Assembly (NCBI GenBank): GCA_003141955.1 | Contig: PLOC01000022.1 | Coordinates: 9,181-51,217, forward strand | Source: Chloroflexota bacterium | GTDB taxonomy: Bacteria > Chloroflexota > Limnocylindria > Limnocylindrales > CSP1-4 | Direction: 5' to 3' | Length of the DNA: 42,037 bases | Shown here: piece by piece, positions 3,436 through 38,673 of the stretch | Numbering within the stretch: the first letter of the stretch is position 1 | Layout: each line of letters opens with the position of its first letter | Notes under the pieces: model-generated | What the model was told of the DNA's origin: nothing | The model's database searches: none | What the model saw: only the letters and a program-made list of their open reading frames with translations | Made by a program: the position numbers and the translations under genes

Positions 3436-3675
3436 GCTTTGCTCTCCCTCCTGCTCGTGGGCGTCCGTGCTCGCTTGCCCTCACCCGATGCAGGATCCAG
3501 GCCACTCGCGGTCCCTGAGCGTGGCTCAGGTGCCGCCCGGCAGCGGTCATGACCAGTTCATCTTCCCACTGTGCCGCCGCTGAGTCCATGCGGCGTTCGC
3601 AGGAGCGGAGTGAGGCTGTGGGCGGTTGAGCATCTCCAGCGCCGAAATCGGGACGGGGCCGCGAGAGAGATCGCA

Positions 3676-4008
3676 CGGATCGATTGGCCGGGCTTCCTGA
3701 GCTCAGCACATCTCCAGGCCCTGGTGGCCGCCGGCGACGAGATCGGCGATCACGCCATGGATCACGTCGAACTGTCCGCCGTCATAGCCGCCAGGGTACC
3801 CTATGAGATAGATGCGGCTGCCGCCCGGATCGCCCAGATCACCGGCTACTGGCCCGAGTCCCTGGCTTACCCGTACGGCGGCGTCAACAGCCGGGTGGCC
3901 GCCGCGGTCGCCGCCTGCGGGGAATTGCGGATCGATCGCTTCGTGGTCCCGAGACTCAAGGTCAAGTCCAACACCACGCCCGCCACCCTGATGGCCGAGC
4001 TTGGATAG
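3676..4008 (+). pseudogene. Truncated polysaccharide deacetylase (NodB-like) fragment
   Basis: This reading frame matches only the C-terminal third of the intact deacetylase at 26005-27081. It has the GFLSS, HLQALVAAG, EIDAAAARIAQ, TGYWPESLAYPYG, VAACGELRI and MAELG blocks. It lacks the signal peptide, linker and the metal-binding Asp-Asp motif. Compared with the paralogue it also lacks about 40 residues between GELRI and DRF. The two edges of that gap carry GATCG in the intact copy, consistent with deletion between short repeats. Similarity begins abruptly near 3676 (cggatcgat). The frame stays open to TAG at 4008, so a peptide could be made, but it cannot be a functional enzyme. Confidence 0.8.
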
Positions 4009-4050
4009 CCTGGCCCGCCAGCCTTACGCTCCCCGACCCTTCAAGAATCA

Positions 4051-4082
4051 CGAAACGGGCGGCGTCTGTGCCGCCCGTTTCG
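4051..4082 (-). terminator. Perfect 13-bp stem-loop terminator
   Basis: CGAAACGGGCGGC (4051-4063), a 6-nt loop (GTCTGT), and its exact reverse complement (4070-4082). It lies 17 nt beyond the stop of the Flp pilin gene on the minus strand and 42 nt beyond the deacetylase fragment on the plus strand, so it can end transcription from both sides. The A/T pairs at the base give a short U-rich flank in either direction. Confidence 0.8.
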
Positions 4083-4099
4083 ATGTGTTGGCCCGCGAG

Positions 4100-4240
4100 C
4101 TAGAGCGCGTGGCCGATGGAGCTCAGGATCGTATTGATCTGGCCGCTCAGGAAGAGCAAAGCGGTGATGGCGAGGATGGCGATGAGGGCAAGGATCAGGG
4201 CGTATTCCGCGAGGCCCTGGCCACGAGAAGTAAGGCGCAC
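4100..4240 (-). CDS. Flp/Fap-type pilin (46 aa)
   Basis: GTG start at 4240, preceded by a strong TAGGAGG site 8 nt upstream, and TAG at 4102-4100. The 46-aa product has the Flp pilin layout: a short basic leader (MRLTSRGQG), then the mature-end motif GLAEYALILALIAI, which includes the Glu-Tyr pair invariant in Flp pilins, then a hydrophobic helix and a short polar tail ending IGHAL. Such prepilins are cut after Gly by a type IV prepilin peptidase and polymerised by a Tad machine. No tad genes, peptidase or ATPase lie in the window, so it is an orphan pilin whose assembly genes must be elsewhere. A 13-bp terminator follows the stop codon. Confidence 0.88.
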   Translation of the reverse strand: MRLTSRGQGLAEYALILALIAILAITALLFLSGQINTILSSIGHAL

Positions 4241-4429
4241 GGTGTCTACCTCCTAGATAAGACGGATCCCCCCGGGACGGAGGGAGGAAGATTGCCGAGC
4301 GATGGTACGCCATCTGCACAGAACGGGTAGGCGCACTTGCTTTCGGCGGCCGGCCAAGTGATGGTGGTCGGCCTGCCTGGAGTCAGCCCGACACTATGTT
4401 GTAGGCGATTGGCAAGAGCACGGCCACGA

Positions 4430-4797
4430 GGCTCCGCGCCTGACGGAGACGCATTCGCGGTGTGCTCTTCGGCCGGCAAATCAGCCCCGACGGTCCGGTC
4501 GTACGAGACCGATACCGATCCAGCCGCTGCCCTGGCCAGCGGCCAGGATGTCGCCCTGTTCGTCGACTCGGCGATAGGCTGGTGGGAAGCCAGCCACACG
4601 GGGAAGTTCACGTGATCGACGAAGTGACCGGCCGAGTGGCCGAGATGGGAGTGGCCCTGCCCCCGGGCCGGTCAGGCTTGCAGGCGGCGGTGCGGAAGGT
4701 CCTCGACGCCATGATCGCAGATGGGTCGCTGGCCGACGGTTGGGCCGCGCACCTCGTCGAGAACGTCACGCTGCCGGCCGCCTCGGGCACGCCCTGA
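4430..4797 (+). pseudogene. Frameshifted C-terminal remnant of an amino-acid ABC solute-binding protein
   Basis: Two overlapping frames together give a continuous C-terminal half of an SBP_bac_3-type periplasmic binding protein. The first part (to about 4611) contains AGKSAPTVRSYETDTD, AALASGQDVALFVDSA and EASHTGKF. The second, one frame over, continues VIDEVTG, MGVALPPG, LQAAVRKVLDAMIADGSLA. The joint at about 4611 (gggaagttcacgtgatc) needs one missing base to restore the frame. The N-terminal lobe and signal peptide are absent. Family assignment rests on the conserved order aLasGq-D-lfvDs / GvalppG / vrkvldamiaDGsla. No permease or ATPase genes are adjacent. Confidence 0.6.
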
Positions 4798-4882
4798 GTC
4801 CCAGGAACTCATCTGCATCACGGTGAGCAGGTCGTGTTTGGGGTGCGACCGCTGACCTTAGGAGATTCTCCGAGCAGCCCGC

Positions 4883-5464
4883 GTGCGTTTCGGCATGTTC
4901 GAACGTGTACGGTTCGACGTGATGCCATTCGATTTGACCGCGGCCAGGCCGACCCCCACCGCAGACGGCAAGCCTCTACGGCTCGCCGCGAGTGTGCCTG
5001 ATCCACATTCCGGCGCATTCGAGACGGCCTACGCGACAGCTTGGCTGCCGGTCTTTCGGTTCGCCCTGGCCTGGACGAACGATTGGTCGGCCGCGGAGGA
5101 CCTGGCGCAGGAAGCATTCCTTCGGCTGTGGGATCGACGGACCGAGGTCGACTGGTCCGTGCCGGTCCTGCCCTGGCTGCTCGTCTCGACACGCCGCACC
5201 GCGACGGATCGCTTCCGCCGGCTGCGGCGGGCACTCTCAATCCGCGGCCCGATCGCCGTCGCCCCAGGATCTGACGCCCGTATCGAGTGGCTCGATCTTC
5301 GGGCCAGCTTCCGCGCGCTGTCGGCTCTTGAGCGCTCGGCTCTCGTGCTCACGGCGCTCGAAGACCTCGACGCCGCTAAGGCCGGAGCGATTCTCGGCAT
5401 CGAAGCGAACGCCGTGCGGTCCGCGGCGAGCCGCGGACGCAGGAAGCTGAAGGAACAGCGATGA
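4883..5464 (+). CDS. ECF-family RNA polymerase sigma factor
   Basis: About 193 aa from GTG 4883. In-frame ATGs at 4895 and 4922 are equally possible because none has a good ribosome site. Sigma region 2 spans about residues 46-115, with the core-binding motif EDLAQEAFLRLW (72-83) and a following basic DRFRRLRR segment. Region 4 (about 138-190) is a helix-turn-helix with SALERSALVLTALEDLDAAKAGAILGI split over two helices. There is no region 1 or 3, as expected for ECF sigma factors. The stop codon overlaps the start of the next gene (ATGA, 5461-5464), so the two are translationally coupled. The downstream membrane protein is the probable regulator. Confidence 0.88.
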   Translation: MRFGMFERVRFDVMPFDLTAARPTPTADGKPLRLAASVPDPHSGAFETAYATAWLPVFRFALAWTNDWSAAEDLAQEAFLRLWDRRTEVDWSVPVLPWLLVSTRRTATDRFRRLRRALSIRGPIAVAPGSDARIEWLDLRASFRALSALERSALVLTALEDLDAAKAGAILGIEANAVRSAASRGRRKLKEQR

Positions 5465-6879
5465 ACGAGCATCGAGATCGCCGCGTCCAGGCCGACGAGG
5501 ACGCGCTGCTGCGCCGCTGGTACGCCGTTTCGTCCGGGTCGCGACCGATCCCCTCGGCCGAATTGCTCGCCGGGGGCGAACGCGCTCACCGAGGGCGACG
5601 GCCGTTCCGGAACCTGGCCATGGCCGCGGTCGCCATCGTGGCGATCCTCGCTGGGATCGCGGGGGCGGGGGCTTGGGTGAGCTTCCGCGCCGCCGCCGGG
5701 CCGAGCAACTCTCCGGGCGCGACGTCCCTGGCCAGCATCACACCCTCGCCGGTCTCCTCGAATTCGACTCCTCCGCAGTCTCCAAGCCCAAGCGTCCCGG
5801 GTTCATTCGGACCCGCCCTGGCGGACCATGAGTACGTCGACCAGATGCACCGGACGGCAACCGGCGGCTGGCTCCTTACGGGGTCGCGGCTCCTGGTCAC
5901 CGACGGGTCGAGTTGGCGGACCTGCTGGACTTCGAGCAACGGGAACCTGGCTGCCCCGTACCCAGTCGCCTTCCTAGGCGACGAGACCATCTGGCTCATT
6001 GACGGATTGACTCTGTGGACGAGCACCGACGGTTGCGCCAGCTGGACCCAGAGCGCCGCCCCAATCGCTTACGCCTCCCCATTCGTTGCGACTGGCATGG
6101 CGTTTCCGGACCAGAGCACCGGCTATGTCGCCTACGCCTACCTGACCGGCACGAACCAGCAAGCGCAGATCTACAGGACCGCCGATGACGGCCAGCATTG
6201 GAGGGTGACCGCGGGTACGGTGAAGGCGGTTGCCGGACCCAACGGCAGCATCTTCGATGGAAACCTGACCGTCGCTTTCGTGGATGCCGACCACGGCTGG
6301 CTGACGGACACCCATACGCTCTGGACGACAGCCGACGGCGGCGACACCTGGACGAGAACAGCACTGCCGGTACCTGGGTCGGTCCACGGCCAGCTGGACT
6401 TCATCACGACGCCGGTTGTCGGGACCGACGGCAGCGCGGTCGTCGTCGCCAAGTACGATGCGACGCCGGGCATGGACGGGGCGCCGGGCCAGCGAGTGTT
6501 CTATCGCACCGTCGATCACGGCGCGCACTGGACAGCTTCGTCGGTCGTGGCCGACCCGGGGACGCTTGAGATCTCCCTGGCCGATCCCACGACCTGGGTC
6601 GTGCTCGATCCGTCTGAACCGGCATCGCTGCAGACCACCACGGACGCCGGGGCTACCTGGCAAACGATCGCCGTCCGGGAACTCTGGCCGTACAACAGCG
6701 GCCCGATCGACTTCGCCGATTCGCTCCATGGTTGGATGGTGGTCAGCGAGCCGGAACCACCCTGCCCCCAACCTTCGGGGATGCCGGGGTTCGTGATTTG
6801 CGACTATGCCTACGCGCCGCCGCAGCATCTTGTGGCGACTGACGACGGCGGGGCCACTTGGGTTGAGCTCAAGCCGTAG
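5461..6879 (+). CDS. Membrane-anchored Asp-box beta-propeller, putative anti-sigma/sensor partner
   Basis: A 472-aa protein coupled to the ECF sigma gene by a 4-nt overlap. A 50-residue charged cytosolic N terminus (with DEDALLRRWYAV) precedes one transmembrane helix (about 52-73), a Ser/Pro/Thr linker (about 78-115) and an extracellular beta-propeller. The propeller has at least six BNR/Asp-box repeats, for example TSTDGCASWTQ (187-197), TADDGQHWRV (240-249), TADGGDTWTR (290-299), TVDHGAHWTA, TTDAGATWQT and TDDGGATWVE at the C terminus. The fold resembles Ycf48/sialidase-type propellers. Gene order and topology suggest that the short cytosolic segment holds the sigma factor and that the propeller senses an outside ligand. 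This is inference, because no canonical zinc anti-sigma motif (HxxxCxxC) is present. Confidence 0.82.
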   Translation: MNEHRDRRVQADEDALLRRWYAVSSGSRPIPSAELLAGGERAHRGRRPFRNLAMAAVAIVAILAGIAGAGAWVSFRAAAGPSNSPGATSLASITPSPVSSNSTPPQSPSPSVPGSFGPALADHEYVDQMHRTATGGWLLTGSRLLVTDGSSWRTCWTSSNGNLAAPYPVAFLGDETIWLIDGLTLWTSTDGCASWTQSAAPIAYASPFVATGMAFPDQSTGYVAYAYLTGTNQQAQIYRTADDGQHWRVTAGTVKAVAGPNGSIFDGNLTVAFVDADHGWLTDTHTLWTTADGGDTWTRTALPVPGSVHGQLDFITTPVVGTDGSAVVVAKYDATPGMDGAPGQRVFYRTVDHGAHWTASSVVADPGTLEISLADPTTWVVLDPSEPASLQTTTDAGATWQTIAVRELWPYNSGPIDFADSLHGWMVVSEPEPPCPQPSGMPGFVICDYAYAPPQHLVATDDGGATWVELKP

Positions 6880-12273: not shown

Positions 12274-12549
12274 CGCCCGCGCCGGTGAAGGGCGACGGAC
12301 GGTGCCCGGGGCTTAACCCCGTGCTACTGGGGAGGCGAGCGGCCCCGCACGAGAGCACCCGGCCGGTCACCTATCGTTCATCGCTTTGGCGCGCTCGACC
12401 GCGCTTGAGGCCGTTCGCGTCCCTCGGCGGAGCTAATGGACGCTGATTGCAGGCGCACGCACGCGCTCTCCAGAGCTTGCTACACCGACCCTGCGGATTA
12501 GCTCCACACACGTCCGGTCCGTGTCAGACTAGCGCGAGGAGGATTGCAT
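12274..12549. other. Intergenic, weak hairpin and ribosome site of the HEAT gene
   Basis: A small hairpin CGGGG-CTTAA-CCCCG (12307-12321) lies 34 nt after the binding-protein stop and may attenuate transcription. The right end carries AGGAGG (12537-12542), which fixes the TTG start at 12550. Nothing else was recognised. Confidence 0.4.
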
Positions 12550-13086
12550 TTGCCGCTGTTCGGACCGCCAAACGTCGACAAGTTCAAGGCCAAGGGAGAT
12601 GCGCCGGGGCTGCGCAAGGCGCTGGAGTATCAGAACCACTGGCGGGTGCGCCGGGACGCTGCCGAGGCTCTGGGCAAGATCGGCGATATCGGCGCCGTCG
12701 CGCCCCTCGCAGCCGCTCTGAAAGATGACACCTCGAGCGTGCGCCAAGCTGCCGCCGAGGCTCTGGGCAAGATCGGCGATACCAGCGCCGTCGCGCCCCT
12801 CATCGCCGTCCTCAAAGATGCGAGTACCGGCGTGCGCCGGGCTGCCGCGGACGCTCTCGGCCAGATTGGGGATCCGCGCGCCCTCGAGCCCCTCGCAGCC
12901 GCTCTGGAGGATGCGAGCTGGAGCGTGCGCGAGGCTGTCGCCGAGGCGCTGGGCCACATTCCCGACCCCCGCGCTGTCGAGTCCCTCAGCGCCGCCATGA
13001 GAGACCGGGACTTGAACGTGCGCCAAGCTGCTACCGAATCGCTCGCGGCGCTTGGAGAGACCAAGTCATCAGCCAGAGAACAGTGA
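12550..13086 (+). CDS. HEAT-repeat (PBS-lyase type) protein
   Basis: 178 aa. The TTG at 12550 is preferred over the TTG at 12544 because AGGAGG ends 7 nt before it. After a short LFGPPNVDKF start, five 31-residue HEAT-like repeats run to the C terminus, each with the pattern VRxAAAEALGxIGDxxAVxPLxxALxD. Repeats 1 and 2 (about residues 33-94) are nearly identical to each other. The solenoid has no catalytic domain. Proteins of this type serve as protein-protein scaffolds or assist chromophore/cofactor enzymes; no partner is visible here. It is probably cytosolic. Confidence 0.85.
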   Translation: MPLFGPPNVDKFKAKGDAPGLRKALEYQNHWRVRRDAAEALGKIGDIGAVAPLAAALKDDTSSVRQAAAEALGKIGDTSAVAPLIAVLKDASTGVRRAAADALGQIGDPRALEPLAAALEDASWSVREAVAEALGHIPDPRAVESLSAAMRDRDLNVRQAATESLAALGETKSSAREQ

Positions 13087-14594: not shown

Positions 14595-14836
14595 TCCGCC
14601 GGCGGCCGGCGTGAGGACAACTGCCCGAGGCAGACAGTAGCCTGGCCGAAGAGTGGCACGCTCAGACGGGATGAGGGGTACTCCGCAACGAACGTCCCGG
14701 CCGGTTCACGATCCCGCGCTCGTGCCGATCGTGGCCGACGGCACGAGCGGCGACAGCCTCGGGGCGATGCTGTTGGCGCGCGAGGCGGTTGAGCTTATCG
14801 AGCAAGCCGATCAAGAAGGCGACAAGACAGCGAGCC

Positions 14837-15508
14837 TCACGCCGGGCGCATAGCCACGAGTCGGAGTGACGCGTCAACGACGGCTGGATAGAGTCGCGAG
14901 GTGCGCAGCGACTCGGCCAACGACTCCGGCAGGTCGCCTACCGACGAGAAGCCGGCGGCAGCTCCTCCGGGTCCAGACATACAGAAGATTGTGGACCGGG
15001 GCAGCAGGTCTCGGGCGAGCACGTATTCGAGGGTGGTGCCTTCCTCCATACCGCCGACGAAGAAGGCGGCCACAGGCTTGGCCTCATAGAGCATTGCTAT
15101 GCGCATGACTTCCAGGCTGGCTAGGCGCTCGAGGCCGCGCTCAGGAGAGTCGCCGGGCACCGCTTCGGTCCACCGAATCGTCCCGTAACCTTCGCGCTCG
15201 AGGCGCAGCGTCTCATCTGTCACCAGCGAGGCGAACAGCCGGGACTGGTAGATCGTCACTCGACTCGGGTCCCGGGTTGAGCACTCCGCGGCCACCATCA
15301 GGATGAGAGGGGAGATCGTGGGATGGCCCCCGAAAACAAGGCGACCGCCACCAGTCAGAACGCCTCGGGCAATGGCCACGACGGCATCGGCAACGTCGCC
15401 AGGGCGGGCCTCCCCGTATTGCGTCGCCCTGTCCACGGACGGGATGCTGGCCGATAAGAAGATGAACCGACCGGCGAGATCGAGTGGCTGGATCGCGAGC
15501 CTAGTCAT
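14837..15508 (-). CDS. SLOG-domain protein, last gene of a TIR operon
   Basis: A 223-aa single-domain Rossmann-like protein. Seen: a first strand FIFLSASIPS (16-24), GGRLVFGGHPTISPL (54-68), VTIYQSRLF (84-92), IRWTEAVPGD (111-120), VAAFFVGGMEEGTTLEY (146-162) and MSGPGGAAAGF (177-187). This pattern fits the SLOG superfamily, whose members bind or process nucleotides such as cyclic ADP-ribose isomers (ThsA of Thoeris) or act as nucleosidases (LOG). The GGMEEGTTLE segment resembles the LOG catalytic PGGxGTxxE motif, so enzymatic activity is possible. There is no SIR2, Macro or membrane effector domain. Its ATG overlaps the stop of the preceding gene (ATGA, 15505-15508), so it is co-translated with the 83-aa protein and, upstream of that, the TIR protein. 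Confidence 0.75.
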   Translation of the reverse strand: MTRLAIQPLDLAGRFIFLSASIPSVDRATQYGEARPGDVADAVVAIARGVLTGGGRLVFGGHPTISPLILMVAAECSTRDPSRVTIYQSRLFASLVTDETLRLEREGYGTIRWTEAVPGDSPERGLERLASLEVMRIAMLYEAKPVAAFFVGGMEEGTTLEYVLARDLLPRSTIFCMSGPGGAAAGFSSVGDLPESLAESLRTSRLYPAVVDASLRLVAMRPA

Positions 15509-15756
15509 GGCGTTTCCAGTGCCGCGGTGACTGCTTGTATCAGCGTCGTTGACAGACCGCGGTCGGCCGCAATCCAGGCTAGCAGGTCACCAGGGGCCGG
15601 GTCGAGATCGGCGCTTTCATGCACCAGGTGACCATGCGGGACGGCGCCTCCCTCCGCAAGCCCCCACCGCGACTTGAGTCTTGCGCGAACGGCTGCGAAC
15701 ACCTGCCGCGCCCATGAGTCCGAGCCTTGGCGGATGGCGACGACGGTGGACGCCAT
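15505..15756 (-). CDS. 83-aa unknown protein between TIR and SLOG genes
   Basis: ATG at 15756, TGA at 15507-15505. It begins 2 nt after the stop of the TIR gene and overlaps the SLOG start by 4 nt, so it is the middle cistron of a compact operon. Sequence features: MASTVVAIRQGSDSWARQVF, a basic RARLKSRWGL helix, a His-containing VPHGHLVHESADLDP segment, then LLAWIAADRGLS and a C-terminal helix. There is no membrane segment or known motif. Its size and position recall small effector-associated or adaptor domains found in conflict systems, or it could be a regulator of the SLOG protein. No family was recognised; the function is left open. Confidence 0.75.
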   Translation of the reverse strand: MASTVVAIRQGSDSWARQVFAAVRARLKSRWGLAEGGAVPHGHLVHESADLDPAPGDLLAWIAADRGLSTTLIQAVTAALETP

Positions 15757-15758
15757 CG

Positions 15759-16148
15759 CTACTGAGAGAGCAACTTCTTGAGGTTGTCCCAGTCCCATCG
15801 GTAGGTTCGGCCGCCGTCCGGAACGGCCCAATCTTCCGAGCCGTCTCGGTACCCGATGATCTGGAACTTGCGCTTTCCTAGCTCGTTCGCCATCTTGACT
15901 TCCTCGCGGACCCCGGGAGCGGATCGCGTCTTGGGGCCGAGCATCACGATGAAGACGTCGGCGCGGTTGATGGCAGCCCGAGCCTTCGCTTCCCACTCCC
16001 GCTGGGGCTGCGCCTCCTTGAGGGACCCGTCGGTCACCTCGAACGGGGAGCCCGGATGCTCCGCCTGTCCGATGATGAAGGCCTTGAGTGCCCGGTCATT
16101 GTCGAAGTCGAAGCTGACAAACACCCGAGTCTTGGCCATCCCTCGCAC
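15759..16148 (-). CDS. ThsB-like TIR protein (DUF1863/MTH538 type)
   Basis: 129 aa from GTG 16148, or 126 aa from ATG 16139; both lie near purine-rich sequence. It is a stand-alone TIR-like fold: first strand TRVFVSFDFDNDRALK (7-22), FEVTDGSLKEA (36-46), W52 and a helix, then INRADVFIVMLGPKT (60-74) and GVREEVKMANELGK (79-92) with the candidate NAD-cleaving Glu at 82-83, and later QIIGYRDGS. This is the pattern of the DUF1863 TIR-like family, which includes the Thoeris sensor ThsB that makes a cyclic ADP-ribose signal after phage infection. It is the first gene of a three-gene operon with the 83-aa and SLOG genes, which suggests signal production here and signal reception or execution by SLOG. 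Confidence 0.85.
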   Translation of the reverse strand: MRGMAKTRVFVSFDFDNDRALKAFIIGQAEHPGSPFEVTDGSLKEAQPQREWEAKARAAINRADVFIVMLGPKTRSAPGVREEVKMANELGKRKFQIIGYRDGSEDWAVPDGGRTYRWDWDNLKKLLSQ

Positions 16149-16181
16149 CCATCCCCGTGCTTGTCCGGTTGGGCATGGTCC

Positions 16182-16224
16182 TCTGATTGGGAAGCAGACA
16201 CTCTGCCAGCTGAGTTACTCCCGC
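16182..16224 (-). pseudogene. 5' half of a tRNA-Gly(CCC) gene
   Basis: On the minus strand the sequence starts GCGGGAG (acceptor), TA, ACTC/GAGT D-stem around AGCTGGCA, G26, then TCTGC-TTCCCAA-TCAGA as anticodon arm. The anticodon is CCC, and the closing pair is a C/T mismatch. After position 43 the tRNA pattern stops: no variable loop, no TTC-containing T-arm and no CTCCCGC 3' acceptor follow within the next 60 nt. Instead the TIR gene begins 33-43 nt downstream. This is a truncated tRNA gene, perhaps a scar of site-specific integration or recombination. Confidence 0.7.
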
Positions 16225-16238
16225 TCGGAGTAGCGACA

Positions 16239-16244
16239 GTTATA
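16239..16244 (-). promoter_or_regulatory. Probable -10 box of the tRNA-Gly fragment, driving the TIR operon
   Basis: TATAAC on the minus strand, within GATATAACTG, lies 14 nt upstream of the tRNA 5' end, the normal place for a tRNA promoter. A weak -35 (TTCGCC) lies 19 nt further up. Since the tRNA is cut off, transcripts from here would run straight into the TIR, 83-aa and SLOG genes. Confidence 0.5.
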
Positions 16245-16303
16245 TCAGATCAGGCTTTATGGGGGCGAAGGCCAACACGATCACCCTCTATGAAAAGGAG
16301 CCC

Positions 16304-16483
16304 GCTGGCTCGGTCGACCTGTCGCCCGTGCTGCGGGCGATGGGCGTCCCGCCCGGGGAGAGGATGGGCGCGCTGCGCTTCAGCCTGGGGCGCGGAACGA
16401 CCGAGGCCGAGATCCGCGACGTGGCAGAGCGTCTGATCCGAGTCGCCGAGACCATGCCGGCCGTTCCGGCTCCGATCGCCTGA
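16304..16483 (+). pseudogene. C-terminal remnant of a cysteine desulfurase (NifS/IscS type)
   Basis: The plus-strand frame contains AGSVDLSPVLRAMGVPPG, then MGALRFSLGRGTTEAEI and RDVAERLIRVAETM. This is the characteristic C-terminal end of NifS/IscS-like cysteine desulfurases (xxVLxAMG, LRxSLGxxTTEAEID). An open frame from ATG 16259 covers it, but the PLP-binding and cysteine-loop regions (over 300 residues) are absent. It lies head to head with the truncated tRNA, 80 nt away. It cannot be functional. Confidence 0.75.
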
Positions 16484-16547
16484 CGCGGCGAGTGGGCGCC
16501 GTGCATGATCGCTTGTTCGTGCCCGAGCGGGATGGGTGGTGCCAGGC

Positions 16548-16775
16548 TTAGCCATCTTTGGGTCCGTCTGCACTGAGAAAGACTTCCAGCTCGCCGACTG
16601 CGCCTCGCAACTCATCGTTGGCGCGACTCCACACCCGCCAGTTGGCGCAGCTTCGCTCCGACCACCCGGCCGTAGTCCCCGGAGCCAGGTCAAACGCCTG
16701 GTGAAAGGCGCGCGTTTCCGAGCTTCGAGTCGCGGCTACCCGAACACTGAGACGACGGAACTCGCCGACATCCAT
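16548..16775 (-). CDS. Small hypothetical protein (75 aa)
   Basis: ATG at 16775 has a good GGGAGG site 4 nt upstream (minus strand), the main support for this gene. The product starts MDVGEFRRLSVRVAATRSS, continues with TRAFHQAFDLAPGTTAGWS and CANWRVWSRANDELRGA, and ends in an acidic VGELEVFLSADG. It is probably helical and cytosolic. No family was recognised. It lies 130 nt beyond the stop of the GH5-like gene, on the same strand. Confidence 0.5.
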   Translation of the reverse strand: MDVGEFRRLSVRVAATRSSETRAFHQAFDLAPGTTAGWSERSCANWRVWSRANDELRGAVGELEVFLSADGPKDG

Positions 16776-16905
16776 GGAACCTCCCGCAGCGGAACGGACC
16801 GCCTGCTGCGGAGTGACTGTACTCCCGGCGCGGCGCCTACTCGGCCCCGAGGGCCGCCTAGTGACATTCGCAGCACCACGCGCTCATCGGGCGGCACGAT
16901 GACTC

Positions 16906-36021: not shown

Positions 36022-38673
36022 ATGGTCAGGATCTCAGGGGTGACGCGCCGGATCGCCGGATCCGTTGTTCTATGCGCACTGGCAGCGCCGTTCTTCGGGA
36101 CGGCGGCCTCGGCTGCCGCCTCAAGCGGCACGCAGAGCCCCAACGTTGAAGCTGTCTGTCCGCCGGCAACTCCGGGCACCGCCGAATGCCTCGCGCTCCG
36201 CTTTACGGACATAGCGGCGCGTCCGGCATCGGCTGTTTCGCCCTTGACGCCACCGTCGGGATACGGCCCTGCCGATCTTCAAAGCGCCTACGCACTTCCG
36301 TCGGGAAGCAAGGGTTCCGGGCTGACGGTCGCCGTGGTCGATGCATACGACCTGCCGACGGCGGAGGCCGATCTCGCGGTCTACCGGAGCCAGTTTGGCC
36401 TGCCCGCGTGCACAACAGCGAACGGCTGCTTCCGCAAGGTCAACCAGACCGGTGGCACTAGCTCGTATCCGACGGCTGACGTGAGCTGGGGAGAAGAGAT
36501 CGCTCTGGACATCGACATGGTCTCCGCCATATGCCCCAACTGCAGCATCCTTCTCGTCGAGGCCAGCGACAACACTTCCGCCAACCTCGGAGCGGCGGTC
36601 AACACCGCCGTGTCGCTGGGCGCGATCGCTGTGTCGAACAGCTATGCCAGTCCCGAGTGGATGTACGAGACGACCTACCTCGACCCGTACTACAACCACC
36701 CGGGCGTGGCGATCACTGCCGCCAGCGGTGACTGCGGCTACAACTGCACGGGCCACTTACCGTCCGACGCCTACATCGGCGTCGCGTACCCGGCCGCTTC
36801 TCCGTACGTGATCGCAGTCGGCGGAACAACGCTAACGCGCGCCGCCAACGCTCGCGGTTGGACTGAATCGGCATGGGGTAGCACTGCCGAGGAGGCCGGC
36901 GCAGGCAGCGGCTGTTCGCTGTACGAGCCCAAGCCCTCCTGGCAGCAGGACACGGGCTGCGCCAATCGAACCGAAGCCGATGTCTCGGCGGTCGCTGATG
37001 CGCCAGGTGTTGCCATGTACGACCCGGACTACGGAGGCTGGATCGCCATGGGTGGCACCAGCGTCGCGTCGCCGATCATCGCCGCCACGTTTGCGCTGGC
37101 CGGTAGTCCGGGGGCCGGAACCTATCCAGCGAGCTACCTCTACGCAGACACCGCCGACCTCAACGACGTGATAGGTGGCAACAACAACGTCACCGGGCAG
37201 TCCTGCACCGTCACGTACCTCTGCAACGGCGTCACCGGCTACGATGGGCCGACAGGGCTGGGCACACCAAATGGTGTGACCGCCTTTATGGCCGGGCCGC
37301 ATCTCGCCGTCTCCGGTCTTCCGAGCCCGACCGTCGCGGGTGTCGCCCACAACCTCACGGTCACCGCTAAGGATGCCTCCGGCAACACCGCCACTGGCTA
37401 CACCGGCACGGTCCACTTCACGAGCTCTGATCCGGCTGCCGTCCTGCCGGCGGATGCGACCCTGACCAACGGGGTCGGCACCTTCAGCGTCACCCTCAAG
37501 ACCGCCGGCACGCAGTCCGTGACGGCTACCGACACCGTCACGCCCTCGATCACCGGCAGCCAGAGCGCCATCGTGGTCAACCCGGGATCTGCCACCACGC
37601 TCGCCCTATCCGGCTTCCCGAGCCCGACCGTCGCAGGCGCGGCCCATAACCTCGCGGTCACAGCCAAGGACGCATACGGCAACACCGCCACCAGCTACAC
37701 CGGGACCGTCCACTTCGCCAGCTCTGATCCTGCCGCCGTCCTGCCGGCGGATGCGACCCTGACCAACGGGGTCGGCACCTTCAGCGTGACCCTCAAGACC
37801 GTCGGCACCCAGTCTGTGACCGCCACCGACACGGTCACGCCCTCGATCACCGGCAGCCAGAGCGCCATCGCGGTCGTGAGCGGCGCTACCTACTACACCC
37901 TGGCCCCGATCCGGGTCCTCGACTCGCGAACCGGCACCGGCCATATCGGCGCGACGCTGTTCCACTCGGGCACCAAGCAGACCGTGGCGGTGGCCACAGC
38001 CGCCTCGGGCGTGCCTGCCGATGCGGTCGCGGTCACCGGCAACGTCACGGTCGTGGGCCAGAAGCGGGCCGGCTTCGTGACCGTCGCCCCCGCGCTCACG
38101 ACCGGCGTCCAGCCCCCGACCTCCACGATCAACTTCCCCCTCGGTGATATCCGCGCCAACGGCGTGACCGTGCCCCTTGGCGCCGGCGGCACCCTCGACT
38201 TCATGTACTGGACCGGCTACACCGGCGATACGACCAACATCCTGTTCGATGTGACTGGCTACTTCGCCAACGACACCGGCGGCGCTACCTACTACACCCT
38301 GGCCCCGATCCGGGTCCTCGACTCGCGAACCGGCACCGGCCATATCGGCGCGACGCTGTTCCACTCGGGCACCAAGCAGACCGTGGCGGTGGCCACAGCC
38401 GCCTCGGGCGTGCCTGCCGATGCGGTCGCGGTCACCGGCAACGTCACGGTCGTGGGCCAGAAGCGGGCCGGCTTCGTGACCGTCGCCCCCGCGCTCACGA
38501 CCGGCGTCCAGCCCCCGACCTCCACGATCAACTTCCCCCTCGGTGATATCCGCGCCAACGGCGTGACCGTGCCCCTTGGCGCCGGCGGCACCCTCGACTT
38601 CATGTACTGGACCGGCTACACCGGCGATACGACCAACATCCTGTTCGATGTGACTGGCTACTTTGGCCACTGA
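36022..38673 (+). CDS. Secreted sedolisin-type (S53) serine-carboxyl protease with Ig-like and RVLD repeats
   Basis: About 883 aa from ATG 36022 (887 from GTG 36010). Signal peptide with APFFGTAASA cleavage region. Numbered from 36010, the S53 catalytic domain spans about 80-430: SWGEEIALDIDMVSAICP with the Glu163/Asp167 pair, SGDCG with the oxyanion Asp241, ADVSAVADAPG, and GGTSVASP with Ser351. GYDGPTGLGTPNG (410-422) is the usual calcium-site end. The long activation prodomain of classical sedolisins is absent. Two Ig-like repeats follow (about 430-525, 527-622), then two identical C-terminal modules (625-752, 758-885) beginning YYTLAPIRVLDSRTGTG, a module common on actinobacterial and Chloroflexota exoproteins. 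It probably degrades external protein at low pH. Confidence 0.9.
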   Translation: MVRISGVTRRIAGSVVLCALAAPFFGTAASAAASSGTQSPNVEAVCPPATPGTAECLALRFTDIAARPASAVSPLTPPSGYGPADLQSAYALPSGSKGSGLTVAVVDAYDLPTAEADLAVYRSQFGLPACTTANGCFRKVNQTGGTSSYPTADVSWGEEIALDIDMVSAICPNCSILLVEASDNTSANLGAAVNTAVSLGAIAVSNSYASPEWMYETTYLDPYYNHPGVAITAASGDCGYNCTGHLPSDAYIGVAYPAASPYVIAVGGTTLTRAANARGWTESAWGSTAEEAGAGSGCSLYEPKPSWQQDTGCANRTEADVSAVADAPGVAMYDPDYGGWIAMGGTSVASPIIAATFALAGSPGAGTYPASYLYADTADLNDVIGGNNNVTGQSCTVTYLCNGVTGYDGPTGLGTPNGVTAFMAGPHLAVSGLPSPTVAGVAHNLTVTAKDASGNTATGYTGTVHFTSSDPAAVLPADATLTNGVGTFSVTLKTAGTQSVTATDTVTPSITGSQSAIVVNPGSATTLALSGFPSPTVAGAAHNLAVTAKDAYGNTATSYTGTVHFASSDPAAVLPADATLTNGVGTFSVTLKTVGTQSVTATDTVTPSITGSQSAIAVVSGATYYTLAPIRVLDSRTGTGHIGATLFHSGTKQTVAVATAASGVPADAVAVTGNVTVVGQKRAGFVTVAPALTTGVQPPTSTINFPLGDIRANGVTVPLGAGGTLDFMYWTGYTGDTTNILFDVTGYFANDTGGATYYTLAPIRVLDSRTGTGHIGATLFHSGTKQTVAVATAASGVPADAVAVTGNVTVVGQKRAGFVTVAPALTTGVQPPTSTINFPLGDIRANGVTVPLGAGGTLDFMYWTGYTGDTTNILFDVTGYFGH
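37882..38663. repeat. Two identical 383-nt tandem repeats in the protease gene
   Basis: 37882-38264 and 38281-38663 appear identical base for base, with a 399-nt period (133 codons) and only a 16-nt spacer. Each encodes one C-terminal RVLD-type module. The lack of silent differences implies very recent duplication, gene conversion or an assembly artefact. The two upstream Ig-like repeats are also similar, but with scattered differences. Confidence 0.9.

What the first reader, a model, noticed from the sequence alone, without database searches (positions are those of the whole stretch)
14837..16148. Compact TIR - unknown 83 aa - SLOG operon, a candidate Thoeris-like defence system without ThsA
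Three minus-strand genes are packed with a 2-nt gap and a 4-nt overlap: a ThsB-like TIR protein (DUF1863 type), an 83-aa unknown and a stand-alone SLOG protein. In Thoeris, TIR proteins turn NAD into a cyclic ADP-ribose signal that a SLOG domain in ThsA detects, unleashing a SIR2 NADase. Here the SLOG protein has no SIR2, Macro or membrane domain. Either SLOG is itself the effector (its GGMEEGTTLE segment resembles the LOG nucleosidase motif), or the 83-aa protein is. I know of no described system with this exact three-gene form.
Basis: partly seen in the sequence, partly recalled or inferred. Interest (0 to 1): 0.88.

Follow-up and report, generated by a model that had tools for sequence, protein, structure and literature searches.

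The report
Broken TIR–TIR–SLOG phage-defence operon
The three 'genes' look like the remains of a widespread bacterial anti-virus module (small TIR, large TIR, SLOG receptor) whose large TIR gene has been cut down to the 83-codon stretch that was taken for an unknown protein.

Summary
The layout is confirmed: a ThsB-like TIR (126 aa from its ATG), an 83-codon ORF and a stand-alone SLOG-cluster-3 protein. The middle ORF is probably not a new protein. In 73 of 80 fetched SLOG relatives, a ~380-aa TIR protein (PADLOC ThsB family) adjoins SLOG or, once, is fused to it. Intact small TIR–large TIR–SLOG trios exist elsewhere, with small TIRs 56–70% identical to this one. The 83-aa ORF resembles the start (weakly) and end (clearly) of the large TIR, as after an internal deletion of about 300 codons. 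In three congeners with the locus it is frameshifted and start-less, or further deleted and stop-ridden; one has an assembly gap there. TIR and SLOG keep their conserved residues. The SLOG model lies nearest to the ThsA SLOG domain bound to 3'cADPR. Close kin of the small TIR also sit beside caspase genes, as in type IV Thoeris. I read the intact module as: small TIR signals, SLOG receives, large TIR destroys NAD. Here the effector is lost, and searches of four draft genomes found no caspase, SIR2_2 or second TIR.

The parts
15759..16139 (-). Small ThsB-like TIR protein, 126 aa; conserved Glu at residue 80 (place of the catalytic Glu)
   Evidence: PF08937 26.6 bits; PADLOC ThsB 3.6e-7; 70% identical to the small TIR of the intact trio in L031 and 62% to that in L027; the Glu aligns with that of the TIR chain 8wcf. 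'Catalytic' is by analogy.
15505..15756 (-). 83-codon ORF: relic of the large TIR gene after an internal deletion of about 300 codons
   Evidence: Profile of 15 large TIRs matches at its two ends in order, 14.5 bits, 0 of 5000 shuffles as high; broken in 2 of 3 congeners, third has an N gap; pN/pS 1.06 against G003
14837..15508 (-). Stand-alone SLOG cluster 3 protein, 223 aa; predicted receptor for an ADPR-type signal
   Evidence: PF18180 88.5 bits; model pLDDT 94.3; nearest solved fold BcThsA SLOG with 3'cADPR, Z 15.0, rmsd 2.9, 168 aligned
16187..16251 (-). Promoter-like stretch and 5' half of a tRNA-Gly(CCC) gene upstream of the TIR; probably an old integration site
   Evidence: Seven matches in the own genome including this one; intact tRNA-Gly(CCC) with the same 5' half in L112, L113, L114 and L116

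Best explanation
The locus is a disarmed member of a widespread TIR-TIR-SLOG module. By comparison: intact kin are small TIR - large TIR - SLOG, and here the large TIR gene has shrunk by internal deletion to the 83-codon ORF. By inference: in the intact module the small TIR senses infection and makes an ADP-ribose-type signal; the SLOG protein, built like the ThsA receptor domain, binds it and switches on its operon partner, the large TIR, as an NADase that aborts the infection. The pair would be a split ThsA in which a TIR stands in for SIR2. Without the large TIR, the Chloroflexota copies keep signal maker and receptor but no recognised effector, so they probably no longer protect alone. My odds: relic origin of the 83-aa ORF 0.85; this division of labour in the intact module 0.4. 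The confidence given is for the relic and disarmed reading of this locus.
For: 73 of 80 SLOG relatives have a full-length large TIR adjoining or fused to SLOG; all 8 plasmid regions opened for SLOG hits show the same order; 5 of 5 large TIRs tested hit PADLOC ThsB PDLC00434; L032 is a natural large TIR-SLOG fusion. Intact trios with a small TIR 70%, 62% and 56% identical to this one: L031, L027, L130. The ORF matches both ends of the large TIR in order, 14.5 bits against 9.9 for the best of 5000 shuffles and 5.0 for the best of 1401 real ORFs; G003 shows both ends again, in two frames. The ORF is broken in 2 of 3 congeners. SLOG fold nearest to ThsA SLOG. The large TIR keeps the Glu at the catalytic place in 37 of 37 sequences, and its TIR domain resembles SPARTA, SARM1 and plant TIRs. 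No PF00656, no PF13289 and no second PF08937 or PF13676 place in the four draft genomes.
Against: The N-terminal half of the relic match is weak on its own (-0.5 bits in the window, 6.2 in G003). With a profile of all 70 large TIRs the ORF scores only 7.2, just over the best shuffle at 6.2, and in a six-frame scan of the window an unrelated stretch scores slightly higher (5.6 against 4.5 bits). The closer profile was chosen after I had seen the C-terminal likeness. TIR+SLOG show purifying selection in the pairs with G017 (pN/pS 0.32-0.36, p about 2e-5), which would fit a pair still in use. Genomes are drafts (73-96% complete), so an effector in trans could be missed. Whether SLOG is receptor, enzyme or brake is untested.
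Confidence: 0.65

Rival explanations
1. A functional minimal two-gene system: the small TIR makes a signal and the SLOG protein is itself the effector (for example a LOG-like N-glycosidase acting on nucleotides). The large TIR was dispensable and has been shed.
For: TIR and SLOG keep the family's conserved residues; pN/pS 0.32-0.36 in the three pairs with G017, p about 2e-5; the SLOG fold is also that of LOG enzymes (Z 13.3); the Gly-Gly...Glu segment and an upstream Arg are conserved.
Against: Among window, G003 and G014, the copies most clearly derived from one truncated gene, constraint is weak (0.52-0.68, p 0.02 to 0.13); G017 may have lost the large TIR separately, so part of its divergence may predate the loss. 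73 of 80 relatives keep the large TIR.
Confidence: 0.15
2. Same relic origin here, but in the intact module the roles differ: both TIRs are infection sensors that make signals (as PADLOC's label ThsB suggests), and SLOG is a brake or clean-up enzyme that binds or degrades ADPR-type signals for separate effectors nearby.
For: The large TIR hits PADLOC ThsB models; 64 of 74 loci with a large TIR have a further TIR nearby; one neighbour cluster present in 12 of 80 loci is a patatin with an SLOG cluster 2 domain by its representative, a plausible effector. PMC9503650 (passages) predicts some SLOG domains to act on ADPr derivatives.
Against: SLOG tracks the large TIR far more tightly than any other neighbour cluster, including a fusion.
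Confidence: 0.35
3. One reading: a working three-gene system in which the 83-aa protein is a real component or effector.
For: The ORF is open in the window, starts 2 nt after the TIR and overlaps SLOG by 4 nt.
Against: Broken in 2 of 3 congeners, unreadable in the third; pN/pS 1.06 against G003; likeness to both ends of the large TIR; weaker codon-position bias than its neighbours (GC 0.74/0.57/0.69 against 0.62/0.43/0.83 for the TIR).
Confidence: 0.05

Closest known systems
Type I Thoeris (ThsB TIR + ThsA SIR2-SLOG)
   Same: ThsB-like TIR next to a protein with a ThsA-like SLOG fold
   Different: SLOG is of family PF18180, not STALD, and stands alone; no SIR2 in the protein and no PF13289 match in the genome
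Type IV Thoeris (TIR + caspase-like protease, N7-cADPR; Rousset et al. 2025, known to me through passages of PMC12847820)
   Same: In 4 of 7 plasmid regions opened for small-TIR hits, a TIR 37-47% identical to this one sits directly before an annotated caspase-family gene
   Different: No caspase at this locus and no PF00656 match in four draft genomes; the slot is taken by large TIR and SLOG. No tree was built, so membership of that TIR subfamily is an inference
Large TIR + SLOG cluster 3 module of other bacteria and plasmids (PADLOC PDLC00434 ThsB plus PF18180)
   Same: Same SLOG family, same gene order in intact trios L027, L031, L130
   Different: The large TIR is reduced to its two ends here
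LOG phosphoribohydrolases
   Same: Same fold (Z 13.3 with M. tuberculosis LOG) and a Gly-Gly...Gly...Glu segment (motif comparison recalled)
   Different: One or two extra residues inside the motif and operon association with TIR genes

Membership tests
Thoeris (any type) | ThsB-type TIR protein | tested here: met
   PF08937 above cut-off, PADLOC ThsB models
Type I Thoeris | ThsA with SIR2 NADase and STALD-type SLOG | tested here: not met
   Third protein matches PF18180 only, no SIR2; no PF13289 in four draft genomes
Type I Thoeris | SLOG domain of ThsA-like fold as signal receptor | tested here: inconclusive
   Fold nearest to BcThsA SLOG, Z 15.0, but LOG and SeThsA are tied at 13.2-13.3; ligand binding not testable
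Type II Thoeris | TM-macro ThsA | tested here: not met
   No macro or membrane protein in the operon; the rest of the genome was not searched for it
Type IV Thoeris | caspase-like effector in the operon | tested here: not met
   Absent from the operon; no PF00656 match in four draft genomes
TIR-TIR-SLOG module (large TIR PDLC00434 + PF18180) | SLOG cluster 3 protein | tested here: met
   PF18180 88.5 bits
TIR-TIR-SLOG module (large TIR PDLC00434 + PF18180) | intact ~380-aa large TIR upstream of SLOG | tested here: not met
   Only an 83-codon relic of its ends
LOG enzyme | phosphoribohydrolase activity | not testable with these tools
   Needs an enzyme assay; fold alone is compatible

The most novel reading that the evidence does not exclude
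The large TIR + SLOG cluster 3 pair is a split counterpart of ThsA in which a TIR NADase, not SIR2, is the executioner, so one TIR speaks to a second TIR through a SLOG receptor. SLOG relatives were found at 257 places in a collection of 84,980 prokaryote genomes (80 examined), including an archaeal large TIR-SLOG fusion, and I found no description of such a system in the library searched. In these Chloroflexota the TIR-SLOG signalling pair may be kept after loss of the executioner.
Probability: 0.3. Interest if true: 0.75.

Novelty: new variant of a known kind. Interest (0 to 1): 0.45.

Why it matters
It turns an apparent 'unknown 83-aa effector' into an explained gene relic. It also points to a conserved TIR–TIR–SLOG module that a current defence library lists only in part: PADLOC 2.0 recognises the TIRs but gave no hit to the three SLOG cluster 3 proteins tested. 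If SLOG couples one TIR's signal to a second TIR's NADase, it is a new wiring of Thoeris-type immunity that can be tested in E. coli with an intact trio.

Tried and rejected
Phage records and one scan of IMG/VR viral contigs gave no relative of the SLOG protein at the limits used. A profile search of PDB sequences with the SLOG alignment found only a weak SeThsA match (E 0.54). Foldseek had no match at E 0.001 or better and ranked ThsA first at E 0.0032; VIA-align gave the clear SLOG-fold rows. TM-macro effectors elsewhere in the genome were not searched.

Assembly error as the cause of the missing large TIR: unlikely, because the separately binned G003 shows the same shortened region, aligned over all 248 columns; G017 is shorter still, and G014 has N gaps there and in SLOG, so those two do not prove the same junction. 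Large TIR moved elsewhere: no second TIR by two Pfam models in 4 drafts. Effector next door: PADLOC on 10 window genes gave only HEAT-repeat and one weak hydrolase match; the other window genes were not scanned with it.

Errors of mine: the first dN/dS run used a wrong frame for SLOG, corrected. A printed tally '0 of 80' read the wrong column; one search is the right one. The large-TIR profile was built from 70 of the same loci in which adjacency was counted, so one search is partly circular; PADLOC's own model on 5 proteins is the independent check. Three rows (L023, L062, L092) were left out of the residue-conservation count, which used 75 sequences besides the window, L021 and L022. The paired pN/pS tests share sequences and are not independent.

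Burroughs et al. 2015 and Rousset et al. 2025 are not held, so I cannot say whether the TIR–SLOG cluster 3 link is described there.

Full report
OBSERVATION. The three ORFs exist as described: TIR 15759-16148 (better 16139, ATG, 126 aa), an 83-codon ORF 15505-15756 and SLOG 14837-15508, all minus strand, with a 2-nt gap and a 4-nt ATGA overlap. TIR: PF08937 ThsB_TIR, 26.6 bits over a cut-off of 21.2; PADLOC ThsB, best E 3.6e-7. SLOG: PF18180, 88.5 bits over a cut-off of 25. The middle ORF reaches no cut-off (best Pfam E 0.13) and no PADLOC model. The window lies in a draft genome of 2.8 Mb. Three of the 100 relatives searched carry the locus, all of the same genus, as do the same three in a class-wide search of 177 genomes. 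In a sample of 400 genomes of the phylum the SLOG family was met in 3: the own genome, G003 and G482, the last with a large TIR next to it.

RELATIVES OF THE SLOG. tblastn found 29 plasmid records and no phage record. In all 8 plasmid regions opened for SLOG hits the SLOG gene lies directly downstream of a 379-390 aa TIR protein, and 7 of the 8 show at least one further TIR gene. A scan of one genome per GTDB species found 346 pattern matches, 257 of them relatives; the best 80 were fetched. In 73 of 80 a full-length large TIR (over 100 bits) adjoins SLOG or is fused to it: 68 overlapping or within 20 nt; 4 more, of which two have a 153-nt gap and two an SLOG ORF whose first possible start lies inside the large TIR; and one fusion (L032, 627 aa). 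The other 7: the three congeners; L050, whose large TIR is interrupted, with a 54-bit C-terminal piece at SLOG; L028 and L092 with only C-terminal pieces (24 and 31 bits); L026 with none. Five large TIRs tested with PADLOC all hit PDLC00434 ThsB (120 to 455 bits). Of the 74 loci with a large TIR, 26 have another TIR gene within 200 nt upstream on the same strand, and 64 have another TIR in the fetched stretch.

INTACT TRIOS. The window's small TIR is 70% identical over 124 residues to the gene before the large TIR in L031 (a gammaproteobacterial MAG) and 62% over 124 in L027 (an Acidimicrobiales MAG). In L076 (Limisphaerales) the ORF found aligns only over 64 residues, at 53%. A Sulfitobacter plasmid has TIR (56%), large TIR and SLOG in a row. 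So the ancestral form is most simply small TIR – large TIR – SLOG.

THE 83-CODON ORF. A profile of 15 large TIRs, chosen for closeness of their SLOG after I had noticed the C-terminal likeness by eye, matches the ORF twice and in order: ORF 5-29 to profile 9-33 (-0.5 bits) and ORF 40-78 to profile 344-382 (13.3 bits), of 386 positions. The total of 14.5 bits is reached by 0 of 5000 shuffles (best 9.9) and 0 of 1401 real ORFs of 70-100 aa (best 5.0). With a profile of all 70 large TIRs the ORF scores 7.2, the best shuffle 6.2; in a six-frame scan of the window with that wider profile an unrelated stretch at 37107-37367 scores slightly higher (5.6 against 4.5 bits). In congener G003 both ends are found again, in different frames (6.2 and 9.4 bits with the closer profile); in G014 the C-terminal end (11.1 bits); in G017 neither. 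By the L031 model the TIR domain spans about residues 132-273, all within the missing part. The start codon is AGG in G003 and G017; G003 has an inserted base; G017 lacks about half of the region and has two internal stops; G014 has an N gap. Differences between window and G003 by codon position are 8/7/4, pN/pS 1.06. For TIR+SLOG, pN/pS is 0.32-0.36 in the three pairs with G017 (p about 2e-5) but 0.52-0.68 (p 0.02 to 0.13) among window, G003 and G014. GC by codon position is less gene-like in the ORF than in its neighbours. Since G017 may have lost the large TIR independently, selection on TIR and SLOG after the loss is suggested but not proven.

STRUCTURE AND FUNCTION. The SLOG model (49 sequences, pLDDT 94.3) is closest to BcThsA SLOG with 3'cADPR (7uxs, Z 15.0, rmsd 2.9, 168 aligned); the ThsA rows span 13.2-15.0, LOG reaches 13.3, DprA 13.1, Moco carrier 12.7 and TRPM channels 10.6. 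ThsA therefore leads modestly and its lowest row ties with LOG. The window's SLOG keeps nearly all residues conserved in at least 85% of 75 relatives; the 5 departures are mostly mild. The L031 large TIR model (37 sequences, pLDDT 93.2) has a TIR nearest to plant, SPARTA and SARM1 TIRs (Z 14.5-15.1); its N- and C-terminal domains were not searched apart. The Glu at the catalytic place is invariant in 37 of 37. In PMC10022894 (passages) R371, K388 and E403 of ThsA coordinate 3'cADPR; I did not establish which SLOG cluster 3 residues correspond. PMC9503650 (passages) predicts SLOG domains to be sensors or enzymes for ADPr derivatives; PMC7272460 (passages) describes the ThsA SLOG domain; PMC12847820 (passages) summarises the signals and effectors of Thoeris types I, II and IV; PMC11204291 (passages) discusses Thoeris with several TIRs. 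Of 7 plasmid regions opened for small-TIR hits (from 42 records), one is the trio, four have an annotated caspase-family gene directly after the TIR, one has a caspase gene further on and one an unknown gene and a PIN protein. None of the four drafts with the locus has a PF00656 or PF13289 match or a second place matching PF08937 or PF13676 (completeness 73-96%).

MECHANISM. Inference: the small TIR signals, SLOG receives, and the large TIR, tied to SLOG by operon and once by fusion, executes by NAD hydrolysis. The window's lineage lost the executioner. The main rival, both TIRs as sensors and SLOG as brake or enzyme, is nearly as likely.

MOBILITY. Upstream of the TIR, 16187-16251 holds a promoter-like stretch and the 5' half of tRNA-Gly(CCC), ending 47 nt before the start codon. 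The own genome has 6 more matches; contigs of G017, G002 and G003 hold 2-3 each at 2.9-6 kb spacing, and the four contigs examined each include one intact tRNA. An integrase (PF00589) adjoins the intact tRNA in L112 and L116. In G003 and G014 the likeness to the window starts at 14717 and ends at 16903, although other window genes lie on other contigs. This fits arrival as cargo of elements that insert at this tRNA; no relative of the two integrases was found in the window.

LITERATURE AND NOVELTY. Searches for Thoeris/TIR/SLOG combinations, family names and types III/IV showed no TIR–TIR–SLOG cluster 3 system in the listings, abstracts and passages I saw. Burroughs et al. 2015, the paper most likely to mention the link, is not held. 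I rate the locus as a degraded new variant of a known kind.

Noticed in passing
window 16187-16251; L112 5166-5241, 8191-8262, 10379-10452; L113, L114, L115, L116: Promoter plus 5' half of tRNA-Gly(CCC), breaking off at the anticodon loop, recurs at 2-6 kb spacing beside one intact tRNA-Gly(CCC); in L112 and L116 a tyrosine-type integrase adjoins the intact tRNA. It looks like serial insertion of small elements into this tRNA gene.
   Followed up: partly
window 14717-16903: The stretch shared with congeners G003 and G014 has the same two limits in both (14717 and 16903); in G014 the HEAT-repeat gene (window 12544-13086) lies inverted beside it.
   Followed up: partly
window 16259-16483: Plus-strand ORF that reminded me of the C-terminus of a cysteine desulfurase (recalled); Pfam did not confirm it.
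   Followed up: no
L032 4852-6735: Natural fusion of large TIR and SLOG cluster 3 in one 627-aa ORF in an archaeal MAG (Bathycorpusculum).
   Followed up: partly
L041 3189-4808 and its cluster in 12 of 80 loci: Patatin phospholipase with an SLOG cluster 2 domain upstream of large TIR-SLOG loci (representative only examined): a likely separate effector with its own SLOG receptor.
   Followed up: no
L041, L042, L052 and clusters in 7 to 27 of 80 loci: Neighbours related to nucleotide modification (Nmad2, uracil-DNA glycosylase, MazG_C, thymidylate synthase, 5-hmdU DNA kinase; representatives only) recur near these TIR-SLOG genes.
   Followed up: no
L082 8629-9225: A close relative of the window's small TIR (64%) whose ORF carries a 74-residue N-terminal extension with a hydrophobic stretch, apart from the large TIR-SLOG pair of that locus.
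   Followed up: no
L135 (Polaromonas plasmid) 3501-5492: Small-TIR relative followed by an unknown 183-aa gene and a PIN-domain gene: possibly another effector type for this TIR.
   Followed up: no
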